This document shows positions 6,144 to 41,582 of a DNA stretch of 41,582 nucleotides, in pieces (position 1 is the stretch's first letter; each line of letters opens with the position of its first letter). A program made the translations under genes and the position numbers. The stretch spans positions 1-41,582 of the forward strand of contig JALQYJ010000160.1 of NCBI GenBank assembly GCA_023254175.1, written 5' to 3'. Under the pieces are notes generated by a model. The model had not been told where the DNA came from and ran no database searches. It saw only the letters and a program-made list of their open reading frames with translations. Source of the stretch: Runella sp. (lineage in GTDB: Bacteria; Bacteroidota; Bacteroidia; Cytophagales; Spirosomataceae).

Positions 6144-9100
6144 ATGCAACGTACTACAATCAATAAAACTATTTCGTTGTTGCGAAAAACCTTTCTTTTG
6201 CCTGTTGTTGTTTTAACGACGGCTTTGGTGAATCAGGATAAAAACTGGGACGTGCCAACCCCTGACATTCAAAAAGAACTCGAATCGTTCAAAATAGCCG
6301 ATGGTTTTGAAGTAACCCTTTTTGCGGCAGAGCCATTGGTTGCAAAGCCCATTCAGATGAACTGGGATGCTGAGGGGCGACTATGGGTGGTAAGTAGCAC
6401 AGCCTATCCTCACCTAAAAACGGGGGAACAAGCCAATGATAAAGTGTTTGTGTTGGAAGATACCGATGGTGATGGGAAAGCGGATAAGTCAACCATTTTT
6501 GCCGAAGGACTTCTTACTCCCACAGGCATTTTACCTGGGGACGGTGGCGTCTATGTGGCTAATTCAACCGAAATTCTGCACTTTTCCGATACCGATGGAG
6601 ATGGCAAAGCCGATAAAAGACGTCGTATTTTGAGCGGATTCGGAACCGCCGATACGCACCATTTGATTCATACTTTTCGGTGGGGACCCGAAGGGAGCAT
6701 GTATTTTAATCAATCCATTTATATCTATAGCCACGTCGAAACGCCTTCGGGGATTAAACGGCTTGAAGGGGGAGGAGTCTGGCAATTACGTCCTCAACAA
6801 CTCGACCTCGATATATATGCTAAAGGGCTTATCAACCCGTGGGGCTTGCAGTTTTCGCGCTGGGGTTCGTCGTTTTTAACAGACGGAGCTGGAAATGAAG
6901 GGATTAATTACGCTTTCCCAGGAGCTACGTTTGTGACAGCACCTGGAGCTGAACGTATTTTAAGAGGACTTAACCCAGGTCAACCCAAGCACAGTGGCTT
7001 GGATATTATTTCAGGACGGCATTTGCCCGAATCGTGGGCGGGATCGTTGATTACCAATGATTTTCGTGCCAACCGTATCAATCGATTTAAGTTGGAAGAG
7101 CAAGGCAGCGGGTTTGTGTCTAAACAAGTGGAAGACCTGCTTTGGACGGAGCACGTGGCGTTTCGTCCCGTGGATATTTCGGTAGGACCCGATGGCGCTA
7201 TTTACGTTGCCGACTGGTACAACCCCATTATTCAGCACGGAGAAGTTGATTTCCATGATCCGCGCCGCGACCAAGAACACGGTCGAATTTGGCGTATTGT
7301 GGCAAAGAATCGTCCGTTGGTCAAGAAACCACAACTTACCAAAGCTTCAGTGAACGAACTTTTGGAGATGCTTCGTCAACCCGAAGATTGGACGCGACTC
7401 CAAGCCAAACAAGTTCTCAAAAGTCGAGGTGCGAAAGAGGCGATTCCTGCCCTTGACCAATGGGTAAATAACTTGGATAAAAAAGACCCCAATTACGAGC
7501 ATTTATTATTGGAAGCGTTGTGGACGTATCAAACATTAGATACTGTTAATGAGTCGGTGTTGTTGACGCTTCTCAAAGCCGAAAATCATAACGCCCGTGC
7601 AGCGGCGATTCGGGCATTTCAACTGTGGCATGGTAAAATAAAAGACGAGGCAGGACTTTTAGCCAACGCCGTAAAAGACACCCATCCACGCGTACGATTG
7701 GAGGCCGTAATTGCCCTACGGAAGCTGAAAACCGCAGAAACTGCTCAAAAGGTCTTGGCTGTATTGGATAACTCGATGGATGAATTTTTGGACTTTGCGC
7801 TTTGGGAAACTGTTCGTGCTTTACAACCTCAGTGGCTGTCTCGCCTCAAAACGGAGCCGAATTTTTTGGGCGACGCCAAGAAAACCTCTTTTGCATTAAA
7901 ATCGGTTAACAACGCGGATGCGGTGGCACTTTTGACTCAACTGTATCAAAAGGGGCAAGTGCCAGAAGAATACCAAAAGGATGCGCTTAACTCGATAGCA
8001 AAATGGGGGCAAGTGCCTGAATTGAATACACTTTTTGAGGTTTCGGTAGAGGGTAATGTCTCGCGTGATAAACAAACAGCAGCGCGTATAGGGGCATTGG
8101 CCGAGGCAGCTCAGCAACGAAAAATACAGCCTACCAATGGATTAGGCCGCATTATGGAGTTTGTGAAGAGCGATGATGAAGTAACGGCAACAACTGCCAT
8201 TCGGTTGATTGGGCTGTGGAAAATGGAAGAATTAAGCGAGCAGTTGTTGGGTTTGGTTCAACAAGGTGAAAAACCCGTCAAGAAGGCGGCATTGGTGGCT
8301 TTATCGGCAATGGGTAGTGAAAAATCGAAAAAAATGCTGCTCGACTTAACAGGGTCAAAAAACTCTCCCGAGCTTCGGGTTATGTCAGCGACGCAACTGG
8401 TGGGGCTAGATGCCAGTGAAGCGGCCAAAATTGGCACAGACTTGATGCGGACTGTTCCTGTTGAAACAGACGTAGCCGATTTGTTTAAAGCATTTTTTGC
8501 TACCAAAACGGCGACAGAGGCTTTGTCTGAAGCCATTAATACGCGCAAAATTCCTGAAAATTTTGCCAAAGCCGGGCGTCAATTGATGGGACGAAACATT
8601 CCTTGGACTCGTCGCCGTGCTGATGATGTGGTGCAGTTGGAAAAAGTGCTAGAGGCGTCTGGCGGAATGTTACCCGTTGAAAAAATGCCCCAACAACTCA
8701 ATGATCGTGAAATAACGGCTTTGGCCAAAACAGTGGCCGAAACGGCTGACCCTGCACTGGGTGAAAAAGTATTTAGAAAGTCTGAACTTTTGTGCCAAAC
8801 TTGCCATGCGATTGGTGGTGCTGGTGGACGAATTGGGCCTGATTTGAGCAGTTTGGGGACAAGTTCGCCCGTAGAAACCATCATTCGTTCGGTGTTGTAT
8901 CCTACACTTTCTATCAAAGAAGGCTATGAGCTACAACGAATTGTGAAAAAAGATGGGAGTGAGATGATGGCTTACTTAGTGAGCAACGGAACATCCGAAG
9001 TAGTAGTGCGAGATGTGGCAGGGCAAGAAATTTCACTTGCCAAAAATCAAATCTCAACTATTGAAAAAACCGCAGGTTCGTTGATGCCCGCAGGATTAAC

Positions 9101-9710: not shown

Positions 9711-10415
9711 ATGAATCTAAAAAGACCCATTGCCGAACTCAAAGGCGCGGGAAAAGAATACAAGACCGGTGACCAGACAATCATTGCGCTTCAAGCCACT
9801 GATTTCCATTTGTATGAAGGAGAGCTTACGTTGATTATTGGCCCTTCTGGTTCGGGAAAAACAACCCTGCTTTCGCTGCTAGGGTGTGTTATTTACCCTA
9901 GCTATGGCGATTTGTGGGTGGATGGACAGCACATTAATTCCCTTAACGCCACCAAACTAGCTCGCCTTCGACTGGAAACCATTGGATTTGTGTTCCAAAG
10001 CTTTAATCTTTTGGCTCCTCTTACGGCCGAAGAAAACGTTGAACTGCCCTTAAAATTACTTGGTTTGGACGTTAGTGAACGGAAAAAACGAGTGCAAAAA
10101 GCTCTTGAAAAGGTGGGAATGATAGAACGCCGTAAAAACTTACCAAAAGCGTTATCAGGCGGCCAACAACAGCGCATTGCCATTGCTCGGGCTCTGGTGA
10201 CGAATCCCAAAATGATTTTGTGTGATGAACCTACGGCATCGCTCGACAAAGAGTCGTTGGTGGTGGTGATGAAAGAATTGCAGACGCTGGCTCGTCAAGG
10301 AAAGTCGGTTGCCGTTGTAACCCACGACCCACGCTTGCAACAGTATGCCGACCGTTCCGTAGAGGTAAAAAATGGATTAGTGATTCCCATTGAATTAACA
10401 AACGTTGCAACTTGA
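9711..10415 (+). CDS. ABC transporter ATP-binding protein (MacB/LolD/DevA type)
   Basis: Start taken at the ATG of MNLKRPIAEL; a TTG at 9702 is also in frame. Motifs are complete: Walker A GPSGSGKT (44-51), Q-loop FVFQSFNLL, signature LSGGQQQR (148-155), Walker B MILCDEP, D-loop SLDK and H-loop VTHD. The NLL-L-tAEENVELPL pattern is that of the MacB/LolD/FtsE group, which drive extrusion of lipoproteins, peptides or lipids with a FtsX-type permease. No permease or adaptor gene is adjacent: the next gene is convergent. It is thus an orphan ATPase whose partner must lie elsewhere. Length (234 aa) is normal. Confidence 0.9.
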   Translation: MNLKRPIAELKGAGKEYKTGDQTIIALQATDFHLYEGELTLIIGPSGSGKTTLLSLLGCVIYPSYGDLWVDGQHINSLNATKLARLRLETIGFVFQSFNLLAPLTAEENVELPLKLLGLDVSERKKRVQKALEKVGMIERRKNLPKALSGGQQQRIAIARALVTNPKMILCDEPTASLDKESLVVVMKELQTLARQGKSVAVVTHDPRLQQYADRSVEVKNGLVIPIELTNVAT

Positions 10416-21366: not shown

Positions 21367-23286
21367 TTAGGGCGCAGGTACTGGACTAGGTTTGCGGTTG
21401 GCCTGATTCACAAGAATTTCATCTGGTTTCTTGGAAGCAGGTGCGCCATTTTTAGGCTTTGGTTGTTGCGACCTCGGCAAAATCACGTTTTGTAAGAAAT
21501 TTTTATTCATCCACTCCGCTTCGTAGGCTTTGCGGTCTACATGTCCTTTGAGGTATCGTTCGATGACCAAAGAGGCGACAGGAGCCGCTGCAAATCCACC
21601 AAATCCTGCGTTTTCTACAAATACCGCAATGGCGATTTTAGGGTTGTCTTTGGGTGCAAAAGCGATAAAAATGGAGTGGTCTTTCCCTTTTTTGTTCTGC
21701 GATGTACCCGTTTTGCCGCACATTTGGATGCCTGGAATGGCGGCCCCCCGTGCTACAGTTCCTCGTACAACGGCCATTTCCATGCCATTGATGACGGGTT
21801 CAAAATAGTACCGAGCTACGCCTGTCTCGTGTTTTTCGTTATATTCAGGAAGGGGATTGTTGTTTTTGCCTACTCCTTTGACCAAATGCGGGATTTTGAA
21901 CCAGCCTCTGTTGGCAATCGTAGCGGCCAAATTAGCCAGTTTGAGCGGCGTAATGAGTAATTCACCTTCTCCGATACTCAACGAGTAAATTTGCCCAAAA
22001 CGCCATTGGTTTTTGCCTATGCGTTTGTCGTAGTACTCTACGCTCGGAAGTACTCCTTTGGCTTCGCTCGGAAGGTCAACGCCTAGTTTTTGCCCAAATC
22101 CAAATTTCTCGGTGTATTCGTGCCATTTTTTGAGACCAATGGACGAAGCTTTGAAAGCGTTTTTTTCGGTATTGGCGTAAATCATCCGACGGAAAACGTG
22201 GTAAAAATATGGGTTACACGACCATTGAATGGCGCTGTGTACCCCCGAAAGTCCTCCATGACCGTGGCATTTCATAGGGGCTCCCGCGTGGCTAAACACG
22301 CTTCCAGGACTAATGACGCCCTCTTGCATGGCCACCAACGCCTGCACGGTTTTGAATGTAGACCCTGGACGGTAGCTTCCCATCACGGCACGGTTGTAAA
22401 GTGGGCGGTAGGGGTTTTTTTGAAGGACGGAGTAATTTTTTGAAAACTCGCGGGTAGCAAACAACGCAGGGTCGTAGCTAGGGGCTGACGTGATGGCAAT
22501 GACCTCGCCCGAAGAAGGCTCAATAGCAACGACCGCGCCTGCTTTGTGCTGCATCAAACTATCGATGTACTGCTGCAAGTCCAAGTCAATACTAGTATAT
22601 AAGTTTTGACCTGCCATGGCCACGGTATCCATTTCGCCGTTTTTCCACGAGCCCTTGTCAACTCCATTGACGTCTTGCATGACATAACGTACCCCACGAC
22701 GTCCGCGCAGGTGTTCTTCGTAAAATTTCTCCAAACCACTTTGCCCCACCAAATCGCCCTGACGATAGTAAGGGTATTCTTGGTTTTCAAGTTGTTTTTT
22801 GGAGATTTCGCTCACATATCCAAGGGCGTGTGCTAGGGTTGGAGCGGAGTAGGTCCGTATCGAACTTTTCTGGTAGTCAAAGCCGGAGTAATCGACCAGT
22901 GCATCTTGAATTCGGGCAAATTCCTGCTTGGAAAGCTGGCGTAAAAACAAGGACGGTTTGCGGTACGAAAACGCACGGGCGGCTTGCATCAAGCTGTCGA
23001 ATTTGGGGCGAGTAATGTGCAATAGGTTACAAAGCGCAAGCGTGTCGGATACTCTTAATTTGTTAGGAGTAACATACAAGTCGTACACTAATGTGTTGTA
23101 AACGATGAGTTTTCCGTTACGGTCATAGATTTGACCCCGCATGGGCACATCAGGAATGGTGCGAATGGAGTTACTTGCCGTTTCATATGTGTTGTCAAGA
23201 ACTTGAAGGTAAAGTAGTCGAATCAGAAAAATCACCCCAACCATCACAAACAACCCGTAAACATAAAATTTTCTATTCTCAGACAT
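21367..23286 (-). CDS. mrdA: Penicillin-binding protein 2 (transpeptidase)
   Basis: 639 aa with one N-terminal membrane anchor (residues 8-28) and the PBP dimerisation domain (MRGQIYDRNGKLIVYN). The transpeptidase domain has SxxK as STFK (309-312), SxN as SCN (356-358) and KTGT at 525-528. It crosslinks the glycan made by RodA in the periplasm. The Cys/His-rich stretch MKCHGHGGLSG...H before the SxN motif recalls the zinc-site region of Gram-negative PBP2, but metal binding is only suggested. The C-terminal tail (about 605-639) is Pro/Lys-rich and disordered-looking. It is first in the mrdA-rodA-kinase-like operon. Confidence 0.95.
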   Translation of the reverse strand: MSENRKFYVYGLFVMVGVIFLIRLLYLQVLDNTYETASNSIRTIPDVPMRGQIYDRNGKLIVYNTLVYDLYVTPNKLRVSDTLALCNLLHITRPKFDSLMQAARAFSYRKPSLFLRQLSKQEFARIQDALVDYSGFDYQKSSIRTYSAPTLAHALGYVSEISKKQLENQEYPYYRQGDLVGQSGLEKFYEEHLRGRRGVRYVMQDVNGVDKGSWKNGEMDTVAMAGQNLYTSIDLDLQQYIDSLMQHKAGAVVAIEPSSGEVIAITSAPSYDPALFATREFSKNYSVLQKNPYRPLYNRAVMGSYRPGSTFKTVQALVAMQEGVISPGSVFSHAGAPMKCHGHGGLSGVHSAIQWSCNPYFYHVFRRMIYANTEKNAFKASSIGLKKWHEYTEKFGFGQKLGVDLPSEAKGVLPSVEYYDKRIGKNQWRFGQIYSLSIGEGELLITPLKLANLAATIANRGWFKIPHLVKGVGKNNNPLPEYNEKHETGVARYYFEPVINGMEMAVVRGTVARGAAIPGIQMCGKTGTSQNKKGKDHSIFIAFAPKDNPKIAIAVFVENAGFGGFAAAPVASLVIERYLKGHVDRKAYEAEWMNKNFLQNVILPRSQQPKPKNGAPASKKPDEILVNQANRKPSPVPAP

Positions 23287-23404
23287 CTATTCTTGTGGTT
23301 TTTAACGAATCGTACTCGTACTAGTTTGTGGAAAGCGCAGCGACGACTACTTTACAAAGTTCGTAGGTTTTAAACGATTTACAAGAAATTTTGAGAAGAT
23401 ATTA

Positions 23405-23440
23405 CCTAAAAAAAGAAGGTGTGAAGCTTTCTTTTTTAGG
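23405..23440 (-). terminator. A/T-rich hairpin terminator after SMP-30 gene
   Basis: CCTAAAAAAAGAA and TTCTTTTTTAGG pair over about 12 bp with one bulge, directly after the stop at 23442. Confidence 0.6.
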
Positions 23441-23441
23441 T

Positions 23442-24455
23442 TTACCAACCGGCTCCTTTTACCTTGGTTTTGATGCGGCAGAGGTACATATCAGCGGTAA
23501 TGTATAATGTGGAGCCGTCGTCACCCCAGCCGCAGTTGGCGGTGGCTTCGCCCGTGTCGATTCGACCCAATAATTGTCCCGTGGGGGTCAAAAGAAGCAC
23601 ACCACCTGGTCCCGTACACCAGAGGTTGCCGAGTTGGTCGGTTTTGAGCCCGTCTGGGAGGCCTGCTAAGCCTTGCTTGACCATCGGTGTGGCGTCATAA
23701 AGCACCTTCCCTGCTCCTATCGAACCATCAGCAAGTACGGGAAAGGCCATGACGATGGCTTTATCGGGGTCCGATTGGGCGACGTACAGCGTTTTTTCGT
23801 CAGGTGAGAATGCCAAGCCGTTGGGGCGGGTCATTTCTTTGGTGAGTAATGTCACTTTGCCATCGTTGCCCACGCGGTACACCCCGAACCAGTCGATTTC
23901 GCGGGTGGGGTCGTTGTGTTTGAGGGGCATTCCGTAAGGTGGATCGGTGAAATAATAGGCCCCGCTCGAATGCTGCACTACGTCGTTGGGACTGTTGAAG
24001 CGTTTTCCCTGAAAATTATCGGTTACTGTTCGTTTACCTGCGTTGGACAACGGCATGGCCGAAATCCGACGGTCGCCGTGTTCGGCGGAGATAAGGCGTC
24101 CTTGCTGGTCGATGGTGAGCCCGTTGCTGCCAGGCTCGTCGCCGTAAGTGCCTGCCCCCGTAAAACCCGAAGGCTTCAAAAAAGTAGTAAGTCCTTCTTT
24201 GGCGCTCCATTTAAAAATGGTGTTGGCGGGTACGTCCGAAAACAGTAAACAGTTTTGGGACTTGACCCACACGGGTCCCTCGGCCCACGTGAAACCCGAT
24301 GCCAGCACTTCGATTTTGGCATCGGGGGCGACTAGGGCATCGAGCTGTGGGTTGTTGCGGACGATTTTACCAAGGGAAGGATAGCTTGACTGCGCTAGAA
24401 GTTGGGGGCTGGCAAAAACCAGGGCCGCCACCGCCCATTTTTGAAAGAAAGTCAT
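23442..24455 (-). CDS. SMP-30/gluconolactonase/LRE family exported protein
   Basis: The start is taken at the ATG of MTFFQKWAVAALVF, which gives a standard signal peptide cleaved after LLAQ. An ATG eight codons upstream (24479) is also in frame. The six-bladed propeller motifs are present: FTWAEGPVW (metal Glu), GSNGLTIDQQGR, RFNSPNDVVQ, TRPNGLAFSPDE and GLPDGLKTDQLGNLW. Family members hydrolyse sugar lactones such as gluconolactone with a divalent metal. An exported lactonase fits a periplasmic sugar-oxidation pathway together with the PVC-type dehydrogenases. It is monocistronic; the TonB receptor upstream has the same orientation but is 245 nt away. Length is 337 aa, normal. Confidence 0.88.
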   Translation of the reverse strand: MTFFQKWAVAALVFASPQLLAQSSYPSLGKIVRNNPQLDALVAPDAKIEVLASGFTWAEGPVWVKSQNCLLFSDVPANTIFKWSAKEGLTTFLKPSGFTGAGTYGDEPGSNGLTIDQQGRLISAEHGDRRISAMPLSNAGKRTVTDNFQGKRFNSPNDVVQHSSGAYYFTDPPYGMPLKHNDPTREIDWFGVYRVGNDGKVTLLTKEMTRPNGLAFSPDEKTLYVAQSDPDKAIVMAFPVLADGSIGAGKVLYDATPMVKQGLAGLPDGLKTDQLGNLWCTGPGGVLLLTPTGQLLGRIDTGEATANCGWGDDGSTLYITADMYLCRIKTKVKGAGW

Positions 24456-24700
24456 GGTTGATAGGTTTAGTGTATCCATACTTAGAAAAGCAAAAGAACG
24501 ACTGAATTTAATGGTGAAGAGGGGTAGTTAGGAGACGAGATGTCGCATAACAATCCGTAACAAGCTTTATAACCAGCTAGCTCCGATTGGACATCTTATT
24601 CACGTCAAGGTTAGTATAAAGGCAAATCCAAAATAAGCAATAAAGCTAACAAACAATGTAGCCGGCTGGGGTACTTATAACCTGACCCCACCCGATACAT

Positions 24701-27421
24701 TTACTCAAACACCCAACCTATATATACAATGCGACCGATAGCCGCTGCTCCATATACTTGTACCGCGTTGGTATTTAGTACATTAGTGCCCCCAAGGCGA
24801 AGTGTGCTTTTGATTTTTGGTAAACGGTAATTAACTTGTCCGTCCAACGTTCCAAAAGCTTGGATGTAACCTTCATCAACGGGCATAAAATAGGTGTACC
24901 CGCTAGTGTGGCGGTAGTTAAACGCGTACGAAAGGTTTTTTAAAGGCTCTCCTTGTACTCCTACGTTGAGTTTATGGGTAGGGGTATTGAACCCTAAAAT
25001 CAAGCCTGGGACATCGCTTTCGTTGATATTCGACCAAGTATAGTTGGTATTGAAATTCAATTTTTTGGAGAAAAAATACTCAAGACTTACCATGGTTCCC
25101 TGCGTATGTACTTCTCGGTCGGCATTGGTCCAAGTTTGCATCAAACGCCCACGCGTACGGTCGGTGGTTGGTTTGGCAAAATCACCTGTGGCTGATGGCA
25201 ATGGCGCGCCCGTTGGGGAAAGTCCATCCTCGCGACCATAAAAACGGAGGGTTCCAATAAAATTGTTATAAACCGAACGATAATAACTTGCATCCACGTA
25301 TAAACCTTTGGTAATCTGGCTTTTGTAGCCAATTTCCCAAGTGTTCATTTGTTCAGGGGCAATTTTGTTAATCGTGATAGGTTTCAAGAAATCAGGATTG
25401 ACTTGGCCATTGGGTAAGGCCGAAACGGCATTTAATCCCTGGTAGCCGTTTGTGACATTGCCCGCTACTAATAACGTACCAAAATCAAGGTAAATAAACT
25501 GGTCTAACTGAGCAGGTTGGCGAAATGCTTGAGCGTAGTTGACGCGGAAGTTATGTTGACGGTTGTCACCCAGCGAAAGTACAGCAGAAAGACGCGGAGA
25601 AAAACGACTACCAAAATTGCGGAATTGGTCAAAACGTCCTGCTGCTGCAAGTTTAAAACGGTCTTTCCAAAGGCTGTATCGAAGCTGTCCGTAGGCACCT
25701 CCGTCCCAGTTTACGATGCGGTCGCGGTACTGTACCTCGTTAGTGTTGGCTGCAATAGGCGAACTTGGGCCGTCCGAGAACAACGTACCTGACGATTGCA
25801 ACAAATGGGTGCGGTACGATGCCCCCACCATGGCGTTGAGTTTGCCGATATTCCATTCGCGTTGGCCGTTAATATCCCAAAAACGAGCGGTGTTGGCAAA
25901 AGCTGCCCCGCGTACTGTCTTGGTTCCGTTGATATCAATTAAACCAATTCCTGCGACAATCTGCTCACGAAGTTGCTGAAAAAGTGGACTATTCACAGGA
26001 AGCTGAACGCCAGAAGCAAGCTGAGTTGCCAAGGCTTGCGCGGCTTCGATGCTTTGATTTCCCGTAATTGATTGAGGAAGAACGTAAGGAGTTGGCGTTC
26101 CTCCTGTGGTATTTGGCGTAAAAGCATTTAAGGATGTGCCTGCTGCTAGGCCACCGCTACGTGCAGCGGTAAAGACCTGGTTCCAAACCGAAAAATAGTT
26201 TTGAGCAAAAGTGGGATAACGTGAGCCGTTGGGTTGGTTGCCTGCGGCCATGGGAGCGTTCATCAAACCGCTGGCCAACGAACTCAAATCGTAGGCTTTG
26301 CCGCCGTAATCGAATACGGTATAAGCCCGCAAAAACCATTTGCTGGTTTTAAGTTCTACGCGATGCACGTCGTACTTCATACCGCGTTGGGCGTAGCGGC
26401 TGGTGCTTTGGAAAATACCGTTGCTCACCGACAGGCGGTATTCATAGACCGCGCGGAGTTTGGGAGTAATTTGCCAATGGAACGAAGGATTGAGGCGGTA
26501 ATTTCCAGCTTTGTAATTGCCCTTATTGAACAATTTAAACGGATTTGCCGACGACTCAGGCCAATTGGCCATTTCGGCTTCAGTATAGCCTAGTGTGTAA
26601 ATGCGGTAATTTTGGTTGTTATTGAAGGTCGTGAGCGCGGGCGAAGTTACGGTGCTACCGACGTCGCCGTAGCGATTGATGGCGTTCCAGCCTGTATTGC
26701 TTCCTTCCGCGTTGTTCAGAGGGTCTGAGCCTGCCAAGCCACCTGAGGTGACGCGTTTGATGGCGGCGTTGTTAGAAGCCAAAAATTCGTCACCTTCGAA
26801 GTAGTTGGCGCTGATTTTAAACGCAAAACGGTCGCCAAATACTTTGGCGTAGCGAAGTTGGCCGTCAATCATGCTGCGATTTCCTCCACGCAACGAGGCC
26901 GAAAGCCCTTGGTATTTGAAAGGGTCTTTGGAGTGCATAAGTAAAACGCCATTGAAGGCATTGGAGCCGTACAAAGCAGAATTGGCACCAAATACCACGT
27001 CTACACTTTCCATGTCTAATTCTGAAACGCCTACCCAGTTTCCGTAATAAAGCGAAGCCGTTGGCGAAACCACATCGACGTAGTCGGCGAGTTGTACGAC
27101 GCGTTCGGCTTTGGAACTGTTGAAACCACGGGTACTAAAACTGGTGATTAGCCAACTCGATTGGCTTACATCTATGCCTTTGAGGCGGGCGAGTGAAGAA
27201 ATAAATTCGGTAGATGGTAGTCGCTTGAGTTGATTTTCGGTGAGGCGTTCGACCGAAACGGGTGTTTCCATAAGTGGCTCGGCAGTGCGGGAGGCCGAGA
27301 CTATTACCTCTTTCAAATAAAGGGTGTCTAATTCGAGGTTTTTTTTCTTAGTGGGGACTTGCGCAAACGAAAATTTAATGGCACTTAAACTTAGTAAAAT
27401 GAGCCTAAAAATTTGTTTCAT
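24701..27421 (-). CDS. TonB-dependent outer-membrane receptor
   Basis: 906 aa with a signal peptide (to about residue 20, KFSFAQ). The plug domain follows directly (LKEVIVSASRTAEPLMETPVSVERLT, FSTRGFNSS, VDVVFGANSALYGSNAFNGVL), then a 22-strand-type barrel with repeated aromatic strand ends and a C-terminal RIVYIGWVFE. There is no N-terminal carboxypeptidase-like domain and no SusD partner, so it is a classical siderophore/vitamin/small-substrate-type receptor rather than a SusC. The substrate is unknown. A perfect 13-nt palindrome overlapping its putative promoter suggests individual regulation. Confidence 0.92.
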   Translation of the reverse strand: MKQIFRLILLSLSAIKFSFAQVPTKKKNLELDTLYLKEVIVSASRTAEPLMETPVSVERLTENQLKRLPSTEFISSLARLKGIDVSQSSWLITSFSTRGFNSSKAERVVQLADYVDVVSPTASLYYGNWVGVSELDMESVDVVFGANSALYGSNAFNGVLLMHSKDPFKYQGLSASLRGGNRSMIDGQLRYAKVFGDRFAFKISANYFEGDEFLASNNAAIKRVTSGGLAGSDPLNNAEGSNTGWNAINRYGDVGSTVTSPALTTFNNNQNYRIYTLGYTEAEMANWPESSANPFKLFNKGNYKAGNYRLNPSFHWQITPKLRAVYEYRLSVSNGIFQSTSRYAQRGMKYDVHRVELKTSKWFLRAYTVFDYGGKAYDLSSLASGLMNAPMAAGNQPNGSRYPTFAQNYFSVWNQVFTAARSGGLAAGTSLNAFTPNTTGGTPTPYVLPQSITGNQSIEAAQALATQLASGVQLPVNSPLFQQLREQIVAGIGLIDINGTKTVRGAAFANTARFWDINGQREWNIGKLNAMVGASYRTHLLQSSGTLFSDGPSSPIAANTNEVQYRDRIVNWDGGAYGQLRYSLWKDRFKLAAAGRFDQFRNFGSRFSPRLSAVLSLGDNRQHNFRVNYAQAFRQPAQLDQFIYLDFGTLLVAGNVTNGYQGLNAVSALPNGQVNPDFLKPITINKIAPEQMNTWEIGYKSQITKGLYVDASYYRSVYNNFIGTLRFYGREDGLSPTGAPLPSATGDFAKPTTDRTRGRLMQTWTNADREVHTQGTMVSLEYFFSKKLNFNTNYTWSNINESDVPGLILGFNTPTHKLNVGVQGEPLKNLSYAFNYRHTSGYTYFMPVDEGYIQAFGTLDGQVNYRLPKIKSTLRLGGTNVLNTNAVQVYGAAAIGRIVYIGWVFE

Positions 27422-40479: not shown

Positions 40480-40516
40480 GTCTTAATCCTTATTCTACTG
40501 AAAATGAGGTTGTTGG
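40480..40516. repeat. Outlying CRISPR repeat, one mismatch to consensus
   Basis: 37 nt from GTCTTAATCC to GGTTGTTGG, identical to the array repeat except CTACTGAAAAT in place of CTACTGGAAAT. It lies 672 bp from the first repeat of the array. Its single change and its position at the end fit a leader-distal (terminal) repeat. Confidence 0.9.
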
Positions 40517-40553
40517 TAATTTGAGAACAGTTGGTAGTGGGGTAGATTATAAA

Positions 40554-40799
40554 TTAAAAAAACCTTCTAATTAATTTAAAAATAATTGTTATTATTGATA
40601 AAACTACAGTATAAGGTACTAAAAATACAAATACTATTGTATATATATCATATAATGACATATCAAGTGCCTTTGAAACCTCTACTAAATAAATAACACA
40701 TTCCCAATAAAGAGTTTCTAAGGTAATAACTGATAAAGACATTATCGTATAAAATATCGATAACGTAATATAAATAAACCAAGCAAGTGATGTTTTCAT
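40554..40799 (-). CDS. Small membrane protein B of the CRISPR-interrupting pair
   Basis: 81 aa, two strongly hydrophobic segments (about residues 5-28 and 52-75) joined by an acidic linker (VSKALDMSLYD), ending with basic KLIRRFF. The start ATG overlaps the stop of the upstream gene as ATGA, a sign of translational coupling. Base composition is very AT-rich, unlike the genes to the left. I recognise no family. Its place inside a CRISPR locus makes a defence or toxin-type role imaginable but unproven. Confidence 0.6.
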   Translation of the reverse strand: MKTSLAWFIYITLSIFYTIMSLSVITLETLYWECVIYLVEVSKALDMSLYDIYTIVFVFLVPYTVVLSIITIIFKLIRRFF

Positions 40800-41167
40800 T
40801 TTAAATATAAAGCTAAGTAAATTAAAAATGGAATTAATAAAAGATAAAACAACAAGTTAATGTCTCTGTAATCAGGAAAATTAGTTAATGGAAAATCATA
40901 TTTTTGAAATATCCAATGATATTTTTGCAATTGATGTTTATGAGTACAACCGTGTTTATCACAATAAATAGAACACCTGTAATCATATCTTTTATTTTCC
41001 TTTCTTATTAAAGTTTCTTTTGTAATACTAGTATCTACTAAAGTTGTATAAAAGTTAGCTGTAGTAATAATAATATTAATAAATGTTATATAACCAGCTA
41101 CGAATTTAAAAAAAGATTTAAGCATGTTATAAAATTGATTAAAGTGTAAATAATAAATACAATTCAT
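40796..41167 (-). CDS. Small membrane protein A with Cys/His cluster
   Basis: Up to 123 aa; an internal ATG at 41125 (MLKSFFKFVAGY, 109 aa) is an equally good start. One hydrophobic segment follows the internal Met (about residues 18-41), and another is at the C-terminus (LLFYLLLIPFLIYLALYLK). Between them a soluble loop holds YRCSIYCDKHGCTHKHQ, three Cys and three His that could bind a metal. Very AT-rich, ATGA-coupled to protein B. The family is not recognised. Together the two genes occupy the space between an outlying CRISPR repeat and the main array. Confidence 0.6.
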   Translation of the reverse strand: MNCIYYLHFNQFYNMLKSFFKFVAGYITFINIIITTANFYTTLVDTSITKETLIRKENKRYDYRCSIYCDKHGCTHKHQLQKYHWIFQKYDFPLTNFPDYRDINLLFYLLLIPFLIYLALYLK

Positions 41168-41188
41168 AAACGGTTATTTTTCATGGGA

Positions 41189-41582
41189 GTCTTAATCCTT
41201 ATTCTACTGGAAATGAGGTTGTTGGACTTTTCAACTCTATCCAAATGAAAAAAAACGCTATGTCTTAATCCTTATTCTACTGGAAATAAGGTTGTTGGAT
41301 TATTTAAACGTAAGAGTGCATAAGTTTATTGTCTTAATCCTTATTCTACTGGAAATAAGGTTGTTGGAATTTATAACGTATAGTGTATAACGTTTGGTAA
41401 ACTTGTGTCTTAATCCTTATTCTACTGGAAATGAGGTTGTTGGAAGATACTTGGGGCCGCTTTAAGCATAGACCGCTTTTGTCTTAATCCTTATTCTACT
41501 GGAAATGAGGTTGTTGGTAACAATAGAGGGGCGCGGTAAAGCCCCTAAATATGTGAGTCTTAATCCTTATTCTACTGGAAAT
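41189..41582. CRISPR. CRISPR array, 37-nt repeats, continuing past the window edge
   Basis: Repeats at 41189-41225, 41262-41298, 41331-41367, 41407-41443, 41481-41517 and 41557-41582 (cut by the edge). Each full copy runs from GTCTTAATCC to GGTTGTTGG. They are identical except one position, AATGAGG or AATAAGG (the second and third repeats have A). Five unique spacers of 36, 32, 39, 37 and 39 nt lie between them. Read on the minus strand the repeat ends in GGATTAAGAC, like the 5'-handle end (ATTGAAAC-type) of many type I and III repeats. No cas gene is in the window, so the subtype cannot be assigned. Confidence 0.97.

What the first reader, a model, noticed from the sequence alone, without database searches (positions are those of the whole stretch)
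40480..41225. Two-gene AT-rich cassette lodged between an outlying CRISPR repeat and the main array
A repeat with a single substitution sits at 40480-40516, and the regular array resumes at 41189. The 672 bp between them, far longer than the 32-39 nt spacers, holds two ATGA-overlapping genes for small membrane proteins with base composition much more AT-rich than the rest of the window. Both genes run on the minus strand, the same direction I favour for array transcription, so they could be expressed by read-through. Either a small mobile unit inserted into the terminal spacer, or a cargo gene pair is kept with the array. No target-site duplication was found.
Basis: partly seen in the sequence, partly recalled or inferred. 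Interest (0 to 1): 0.8.

Follow-up and report, generated by a model that had tools for sequence, protein, structure and literature searches.

The report
Phage fragment lodged between CRISPR repeats
Two small membrane-protein genes sit in a stretch of DNA, at least partly from a phage, that is wedged exactly between two repeats of a bacterial CRISPR array, where a normal entry would be about 36 letters long rather than 672.

Summary
A CRISPR repeat with one mismatch (40480-40516) and the array from 41189 bracket 672 bp at 22.5% GC (rest of window 44.5%). The insert holds two ATGA-overlapping minus-strand membrane-protein genes. The window is a whole contig that ends inside the array.

New evidence: (1) the insert's last 86 bp (41103-41188) are 89.5% identical to the region just before a holin-type gene of a 91.5-kb phage contig. 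The match stops at the base before the repeat, two codons into the phage ORF. (2) A diverged second copy of the pair lies beside a degenerate copy of the same repeat on contig C48, after the cas2-cas1 operon. A third small membrane gene, P0005, lies there too. All three gene units start with a 20-nt element found exactly three times in this genome. (3) Distant homologs, some fused into one protein, are chromosomal genes with no array seen nearby.

Best reading: phage DNA joined to the array at repeat boundaries, by recombination with a phage-borne repeat or by capture of a gene-sized 'spacer'. Which of the two is unresolved. A function for the pair in CRISPR immunity is unproven. The pair itself was not found in any phage searched.

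The parts
40480..40516 (-). leader-distal CRISPR repeat, one substitution (strand given is the presumed crRNA sense)
   Evidence: direction from relative G010
40517..41188 (.). 672-bp AT-rich insert between two CRISPR repeats
40518..40574 (+). possible 3' end of a plus-strand ORF entering from the left edge (18 codons then stop); position collinear with the phage endolysin side; weak
   Evidence: translation; nearby weak phage match 40546-40574, 2 of 500 shuffles as good
40554..40799 (-). gene2, 81-aa membrane protein (P0002)
   Evidence: paralog P0004 at C48:7623-7868
40796..41125 (-). gene1, 109-aa membrane protein with C-x3-C-x2-H-x-C-x-H motif (P0001; ORF extends to 41167 but start at 41125 is preferred)
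   Evidence: paralog P0003 at C48:7279-7626
41131..41150 (-). 20-nt upstream element TTTANACTTTAANCAATTTT, three exact copies in the genome
41103..41188 (.). 86 bp, 89.5% identical to the region before a holin-type gene of a 91.5-kb phage contig; ends at the base before the repeat
41189..41582 (-). CRISPR array, five full repeats and one truncated by the contig end (presumed crRNA sense)

Best explanation
The insert is foreign DNA, at least its right part from a phage lysis region, joined to this CRISPR array (type III-B, judged from a relative) exactly at repeat boundaries. It carries two overlapping small membrane-protein genes with their own conserved upstream element. A related unit and a third small membrane gene lie at the start of such a locus on contig C48. 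SHOWN: flanking repeats; the 86-bp phage match ending at the repeat; a second pair beginning at the edge of a degenerate repeat, downstream of cas2-cas1; an element shared by the three units and found nowhere else in the genome; fusion of the two proteins in two other genomes. INFERRED: the whole 672 bp is phage DNA; entry used the repeat itself, either by homologous recombination between an array repeat and a solitary repeat carried by a phage (slightly preferred, because the same gene pair, in the same orientation to the repeat, with edges about 31 nt apart, was taken twice) or by Cas1-Cas2 taking in an overlong fragment. The pair is probably expressed from its own element and forms a small membrane complex. 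It is most likely a hitch-hiking or superinfection-type phage membrane function rather than a Cas effector.
For: Insert 587-672 (window 41103-41188) matches L121 9921-10006 at 89.5%, E 1.4e-27: 115 bits against a best of 42.8 for 200 Markov-resampled inserts. The match ends at the last insert base, the sixth base of a holin-type ORF whose relatives include a gene annotated teaA: holin in phage ICP1 (PHROGs calls its family unknown function). C48:7247-7300 matches the same phage region at 85%, E 1.7e-11, starting at the first base after the degenerate repeat (7210-7246); C48:6719-6764 at 81%, E 5e-5. Both edges of the insert abut complete repeats. Element: exactly 3 perfect copies in 4.85 Mb, all before these genes; about 0.0007 expected for independent bases. 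The cas operon on C48 is 90% identical over 6.1 kb to relative G010, where the array follows after a 111-nt leader with 89 uninterrupted intervals of 70-78 nt; C48 departs from G010 28 bp after the last shared gene. A phage contig with one solitary copy of this repeat exists (L112). Insert 22.5% GC; phage piece 27.6%.
Against: The gene pair itself was not found in phages: no match for P0001, P0002, P0003 or P0005 in 50,697 phage records (P0004 was not tried there), none in IMG/VR by peptide patterns, which reach close relatives only, and nothing below E 0.03 in L121-L125. Only 86 of 672 bp are tied to phage with certainty; the left-edge match is weak (2 of 500 shuffles). Distant homologs are chromosomal genes in other Bacteroidota, so a cellular origin is possible. 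L121-L125 carry no copy of the repeat (best 23 of 37). In the phage-repeat model the repeat would have to sit at codon 3 of a holin-type gene. Spacers of this array (5) and of G010 (89) show no real match to the phage pieces held. C48 and C160 are not joined in the assembly.
Confidence: 0.6

Rival explanations
1. Accessory membrane effector of the type III-B system: the pair and P0005 are kept at the CRISPR locus because they act as membrane-damaging effectors or regulators in its immunity.
For: Two diverged pairs plus a third small membrane gene, all with one shared element, lie at CRISPR repeats or beside the cas operon. The relative's locus has Cmr4-6, Csx1 and a CARF gene. Known type III systems use small membrane effectors (Csx23, Cam1-3; passages of PMC11014256 and PMC11229360). 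Protein sequence constrained: gene2 pN 0.37, pS 0.65; random codon pairing gives 0.67 and 0.57.
Against: No CARF or other sensor domain; no match above noise in Pfam, PADLOC and NCBIfam, nor in PHROGs for the window's two proteins. 0 of 12 same-genus genomes, including the two with the same repeat, have them. Homologs elsewhere: no array seen in any of 13 loci. gene1 pN/pS is only 0.90.
Confidence: 0.15
2. Ordinary chromosomal gene pair that was duplicated together with a CRISPR repeat inside the host; the phage similarity means that phages took the element from cells.
For: Chromosomal pairs exist in four genomes of genus g47; C48 also carries a partial duplication of the neighbouring gene at 98% identity, so the region is prone to duplication.
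Against: The shared segment includes the start of a phage holin-type ORF; the insert is as AT-rich as the phage; no further copy was found in this genome and none in 12 same-genus genomes.
Confidence: 0.12
3. CreTA-like module: the degenerate repeat makes a guide RNA that represses the neighbouring genes, which poison the cell if the CRISPR system is lost.
For: Degenerate repeat (31 of 37) lies 7 nt before the shared element upstream of pair 2; degenerated ectopic repeats are typical of CreTA (abstract and introduction of PMC9458426).
Against: The first bases after the three repeats show no unusual match to the other units' DNA in any of 7 comparisons. In the text read, CreT is an RNA and type I-B Cascade does the repression; the relative's locus here is III-B.
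Confidence: 0.05
4. Assembly artefact: the insert was joined to the array by a chimeric contig.
For: Draft genome of 199 contigs; C160 and C48 both end in repeated sequence.
Against: The insert lies 394 bp inside the contig with a complete repeat on each side, and an independent contig shows the same gene-beside-repeat arrangement.
Confidence: 0.05

Closest known systems
Phage solitary repeat units / RNA anti-CRISPRs (Racr; PMC10651486, passages read)
   Same: Phage DNA associated with a copy of the host CRISPR repeat; that paper cites earlier suggestions that such repeats could let viruses integrate in CRISPR arrays; one Racr is said to share a transcript with an acr gene.
   Different: Here the phage-like DNA is in the host array between two repeats; no repeat was seen in the matching phage pieces, and no anti-CRISPR activity is known for the pair.
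Ordinary CRISPR spacer
   Same: Foreign DNA bounded on both sides by full repeats, with an exact repeat edge.
   Different: 672 bp instead of 32-39; carries complete genes; all 89 intervals in the relative's array are 70-78 nt.
Type III ancillary membrane effectors (Csx23, Cam1-3; passages read)
   Same: Small membrane proteins at a type III locus.
   Different: No nucleotide-sensing domain found; patchy; homologs live away from CRISPR.
CreTA (CRISPR-regulated toxin-antitoxin; abstract and introduction of PMC9458426 read)
   Same: Degenerate ectopic repeat near cas genes and next to a short gene unit.
   Different: No guide-like match found; type III locus in the relative; protein genes.
Insertion sequence in a CRISPR array (recalled)
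   Same: Foreign DNA interrupts the array.
   Different: No transposase, terminal inverted repeats or target-site duplication found.

Membership tests
CRISPR spacer (overlong) | bounded by complete repeats on both sides, foreign sequence starting at the repeat edge | tested here: met
   phage match ends at 41188, repeat starts at 41189; repeat at 40480-40516 complete. Left edge not tied to phage with certainty
CRISPR spacer (overlong) | length set by Cas1-Cas2, about 32-39 nt here | tested here: not met
   672 bp
Insertion sequence / transposon | transposase gene, terminal inverted repeats, target-site duplication | tested here: not met
   only the two membrane ORFs of 60 aa or more; end pairing 13 (insert) and 16 (gene unit) of 25, against mean 13.0 and maximum 16 in 200 window placements and 28 of 200 at 16 or more in AT-rich phage DNA; only a 6-nt shared word near the edges
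Phage SRU-mediated integration | source phage carries a copy of the repeat next to the integrated genes | tested here: inconclusive
   phage contig L112 has one solitary repeat (36 of 37 to the window's form, identical to G010's form), but L121-L125 have none, and L112 gives only weak hits to the gene2 and P0005 models (E 0.009 and 0.016) that look unrelated
[quoted passage not shown]
   longest seed matches of 3-6 bases, reached by 158 to 290 of 300 shuffles in 7 comparisons (one search was a first run with one start set a base late)
CreTA | CRISPR effector represses a toxic RNA | not testable with these tools
   needs RNA and genetic data
Type III ancillary effector | cOA- or SAM-AMP-sensing domain | tested here: not met
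   no CARF/SAVED or other match above noise in Pfam, PADLOC, NCBIfam
Type III ancillary effector | recurrent association with type III loci across genomes | tested here: not met
   both copies in this genome only; no array in any of 13 accepted homolog loci of 5.8-17 kb; cas genes there were judged by eye only

The most novel reading that the evidence does not exclude
A type III-B adaptation module that includes a primase-polymerase (CAPP) has more than once taken in gene-sized phage fragments as 'giant spacers' bounded by repeats. The array thereby acts as a gene-capture platform, and at least one phage membrane-gene pair has been kept as a working host gene.
Probability: 0.22. Interest if true: 0.85.

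Novelty: new variant of a known kind. Interest (0 to 1): 0.6.

Why it matters
CRISPR arrays are thought to hold only short, measured fragments of invaders. A phage fragment with whole genes sitting exactly between repeats, and a relative of it beside a repeat near the cas operon, makes two questions testable: whether Cas1-Cas2 (here with a CRISPR-associated primase-polymerase) can ever take in gene-sized DNA, and whether phage-borne repeats let phages recombine into arrays, as has been suggested (PMC10651486, passage read). It would also be a simple route by which phage membrane genes become host genes.

Tried and rejected
Family libraries gave no identity for the pair or for P0005 (relatives: 50, 112, 113). 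Weak hits were treated as noise: E 0.01-1 for the window and C48 proteins, and CcmD_alt_fam at E 0.004, below its cut-off, for the gene2 relative of G121. Solved-structure searches gave nothing meaningful (interleukin-21 and Fc receptors at E 0.07-0.9 for gene1; none for gene2). Peptide-pattern scans of GTDB contigs and IMG/VR found no relative. Plasmids gave no match (P0001, P0004). The insert's DNA against 50,697 phage records gave 5 matches of about 40 bases at E 0.02-0.06, taken as chance. An exact 26-nt pattern of the left edge had no place in IMG/VR. Spacers of this array (5) and of G010 (89) gave only short matches (12-20 bases, lowest E 0.003) to the phage pieces and to C48/C160.

My first idea, that the 38 nt and 37 nt at the insert edges are two intact spacers and the pair replaced a repeat, was dropped when the 38 nt proved to be DNA from before a phage holin-type gene. 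My guess that the element derives from the CRISPR leader was dropped: 378 of 1000 shuffles of the G010 leader match as well. P0005 as a relative of gene1/gene2 rests on a short motif only (gene2 model 0 of 1000 local shuffles as good, gene1 model 1 of 1000); by sequence it belongs with two proteins of G145 and G259, which are of one genus (0 of 1000).

Rows dropped before counts: 84 of 297 genomes at E up to 1, of which I first followed G146 and G260 and looked at G123 without result; G125 and G105 were also among the rows and were confirmed later by other searches., 10 of 395, accepted 5 including this genome; the other five have stops inside., 4 of 60 accepted., 4 of 395, accepted 2 including this genome; the other two have stops inside and were not inspected., 11 of 99, accepted 7 including this genome (G044 has a stop inside the match and is the weakest); four at E 0.02-0.03 dropped., 10 of 347, accepted 3 including this genome; G262 and G149 were looked at and not accepted, the other five not inspected. 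One search scanned 15 loci for arrays; two of them (G262, G149) hold no accepted homolog, so the count used is 13. 8 viral places: 5 share one unrelated sequence, 1 is not followed by a start codon, L118 has an unrelated gene after the element, L117 is the informative one.

Full report
OBSERVATION. The repeat GTCTTAATCCTTATTCTACTGGAAATGAGGTTGTTGG occurs with one substitution at 40480 and again from 41189 in regular steps. The window is the whole contig G000:C160 and ends inside a repeat. The 672 bp between are 22.5% GC against 44.5% for 1-40479; the lowest of 3,981 other windows of that length is 32.4%. They hold gene1 (40796-41125, 109 aa; open to 41167) and gene2 (40554-40799, 81 aa), both minus strand, overlapping by ATGA.

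THE SECOND COPY. In this genome a diverged copy of the pair lies on contig C48 (gene1 40-42%, gene2 44% identical), again overlapping by four bases. It follows, after 7 nt plus the shared element, a degenerate copy of the same repeat (C48:7210-7246, 31 of 37 bases). C48 carries, in order, a BT4734-like primase-polymerase, cas2, cas1, a Csx1/Csm6-like gene, a TPR-DUF7017-S1/CSD gene (P0006), a 109-aa membrane protein (P0005), the degenerate repeat and the second pair. The polymerase would fit the CAPP_B class, described as VirE-N proteins predominantly of type III operons and almost confined to Bacteroidetes (passages of PMC8211822).

THE UNINTERRUPTED LOCUS IN A RELATIVE. The repeat, within 3 mismatches, was found in 3 of 247 genomes: this one and 2 of its 12 same-genus relatives (G010 with 90 copies, G004 with 1). 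None of the 12 has the pair or P0005. In G010 the operon, 90% identical over 6.1 kb to C48, runs into the array after a 111-nt leader, with 89 uninterrupted intervals of 70-78 nt. Cmr4, Cmr5, Cmr6, Csx1 and a CARF gene lie upstream, so the system there is of III-B type; cas10 lies outside the stretch I fetched, and the effector genes of this genome were not searched for. Array and operon run the same way in G010, and 3 of its 4 imperfect repeats lie in the far tenth. This supports minus-strand array transcription in the window and places the insert at the leader-distal, oldest end. C48 departs from G010 28 bp after the end of P0006, just where the P0005 unit begins. C48 and C160 are therefore probably two ends of one locus, but the assembly does not join them.

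A SHARED START. gene1 in the window, gene1 on C48 and P0005 are each preceded by TTTANACTTTAANCAATTTT. The whole genome has exactly three perfect copies, these three; two further places match with two mismatches, and the reversed control gave three places within two mismatches. About 0.0007 perfect copies are expected for independent bases. The nine homologs elsewhere whose upstream DNA I checked lack it (best 12-13 of 20 positions, two of which are free).

PHAGE ORIGIN OF THE EDGE. Scanning IMG/VR for the element gave 8 places. One, in a 91,498-bp phage contig, continues as in the window. With 20 kb of that contig (L121), the last 86 bases of the insert (41103-41188) match 9921-10006 at 89.5%, E 1.4e-27; 115 bits against at most 42.8 for 200 resampled inserts. 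The match ends at base 41188, the last before the repeat, which in the phage is the sixth base of a holin-type ORF. Relatives of that ORF include a gene annotated teaA: holin in phage ICP1, though PHROGs lists its family as of unknown function; the gene before it is an endolysin. C48 matches the same phage region from the first base after its degenerate repeat (7247-7300, 85%, E 1.7e-11), and so does the start of P0005 (6719-6764, 81%, E 5e-5). At the other edge of the insert a weak match to the phage endolysin end is collinear, but 2 of 500 shuffles do as well. So the right edge is phage DNA cut inside a phage gene. That the whole insert is phage DNA is an inference.

WHAT THE GENES ARE. No library names them. 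Profiles built step by step found the pair in four genomes of one GC-rich genus, g47 (G146, G260, G377, G436), by eye with an EamA-type transporter gene in the neighbourhood of each; an overlapping pair in G592; single-protein fusions of gene1 and gene2 in G125 and G105; and lone gene2 relatives in G121, G109 and G101, with a weaker one in G044. Fusion in two lineages and conserved overlap indicate that the two proteins work together. gene1 has a C-x3-C-x2-H-x-C-x-H motif complete in the four sequences; over seven sequences C, C and H remain invariant. A simple finder of repeated 20-mers, which does detect the arrays of C160 and G010, saw no array in any of the 13 loci with an accepted homolog (5.8-17 kb each); it would miss a single repeat. 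Between the two copies in this genome gene2 looks constrained (pN 0.37, pS 0.65; random codon pairing 0.67, 0.57), gene1 less clearly (0.41, 0.45; random 0.69, 0.54).

MECHANISM. Shown: complete repeats on both sides; phage sequence ending at the repeat edge; a second unit starting at a repeat edge in the same orientation. Not shown: how it entered. A phage that carried the repeat could recombine into the array, leaving phage DNA flanked by repeats with no target-site duplication. Another phage contig (L112; terminase, portal and major head proteins) does carry one solitary copy, 36 of 37 bases like the window's repeat and identical to G010's form, and integration of such phages into arrays has been suggested (PMC10651486, passage read). 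This also explains why the same pair was taken twice with edges about 31 nt apart. Against it, L121-L125 have no repeat and the right edge falls inside a holin-type gene. Capture of an overlong fragment by Cas1-Cas2 explains an edge inside a gene, but not the recurrence, nor the absence of any long interval among 89 in G010. I put the two at roughly 5 to 4 and leave the choice open.

FUNCTION. Most likely the pair is a phage membrane function (lysis timing or exclusion of other phages) carried along and possibly kept. A role in type III immunity cannot be excluded (Csx23 and Cam proteins are membrane effectors; passages of PMC11014256 and PMC11229360), but no sensor domain was found and the link does not recur. 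A CreTA-like role was tested through guide matches and found no support in 7 comparisons.

LITERATURE. Of ten full-text searches, six were aimed at genes or long foreign DNA inside arrays; their listings showed no paper on gene-sized phage DNA between CRISPR repeats. Wording and the open-access limit make this weak. The other four sought comparison systems. From PMC6858448 (mini-CRISPR arrays of viruses) only the listing was seen.

VERDICT.

Noticed in passing
L112:3329-3365 (IMGVR_UViG_3300021963_001455, 13,089 bp): A tailed-phage contig carries one solitary copy of this genus's CRISPR repeat at the end of a 186-aa ORF and before the next gene: a candidate RNA anti-CRISPR or integration repeat.
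   Followed up: partly
L011:7992-8097 (contig C48 end): The last 106 bases of C48 repeat part of gene P0006 at 98% identity, after a short unassigned stretch: a partial duplication between the second pair and the missing continuation of the locus.
   Followed up: partly
L011:5217-6695: A TPR-DUF7017-S1/CSD protein related to TOTE conflict systems (PADLOC candidate PDC-M16B) follows cas1 and a Csx1-like gene in this genome and in G010.
   Followed up: partly
L011:6745-7074: P0005, a 109-aa membrane protein whose relatives in G145 and G259 share the motif (S/T)Y-x3-N-I with the gene1/gene2 modules; in G145 it follows what looks by eye like a HigB/HigA pair.
   Followed up: partly
L070 (G010:C3; joined coordinates 22586-26967): What looks by eye like a second CRISPR array and cas4, cas2, cas1 and cas3 genes on the opposite strand follows the III-B array in the relative.
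   Followed up: no
L071:166-201 (G004:C48): A lone repeat of the same type, near a contig end and beside genes that look by eye like an IS21-type element, in another same-genus genome; perhaps a remnant of a lost array.
   Followed up: no
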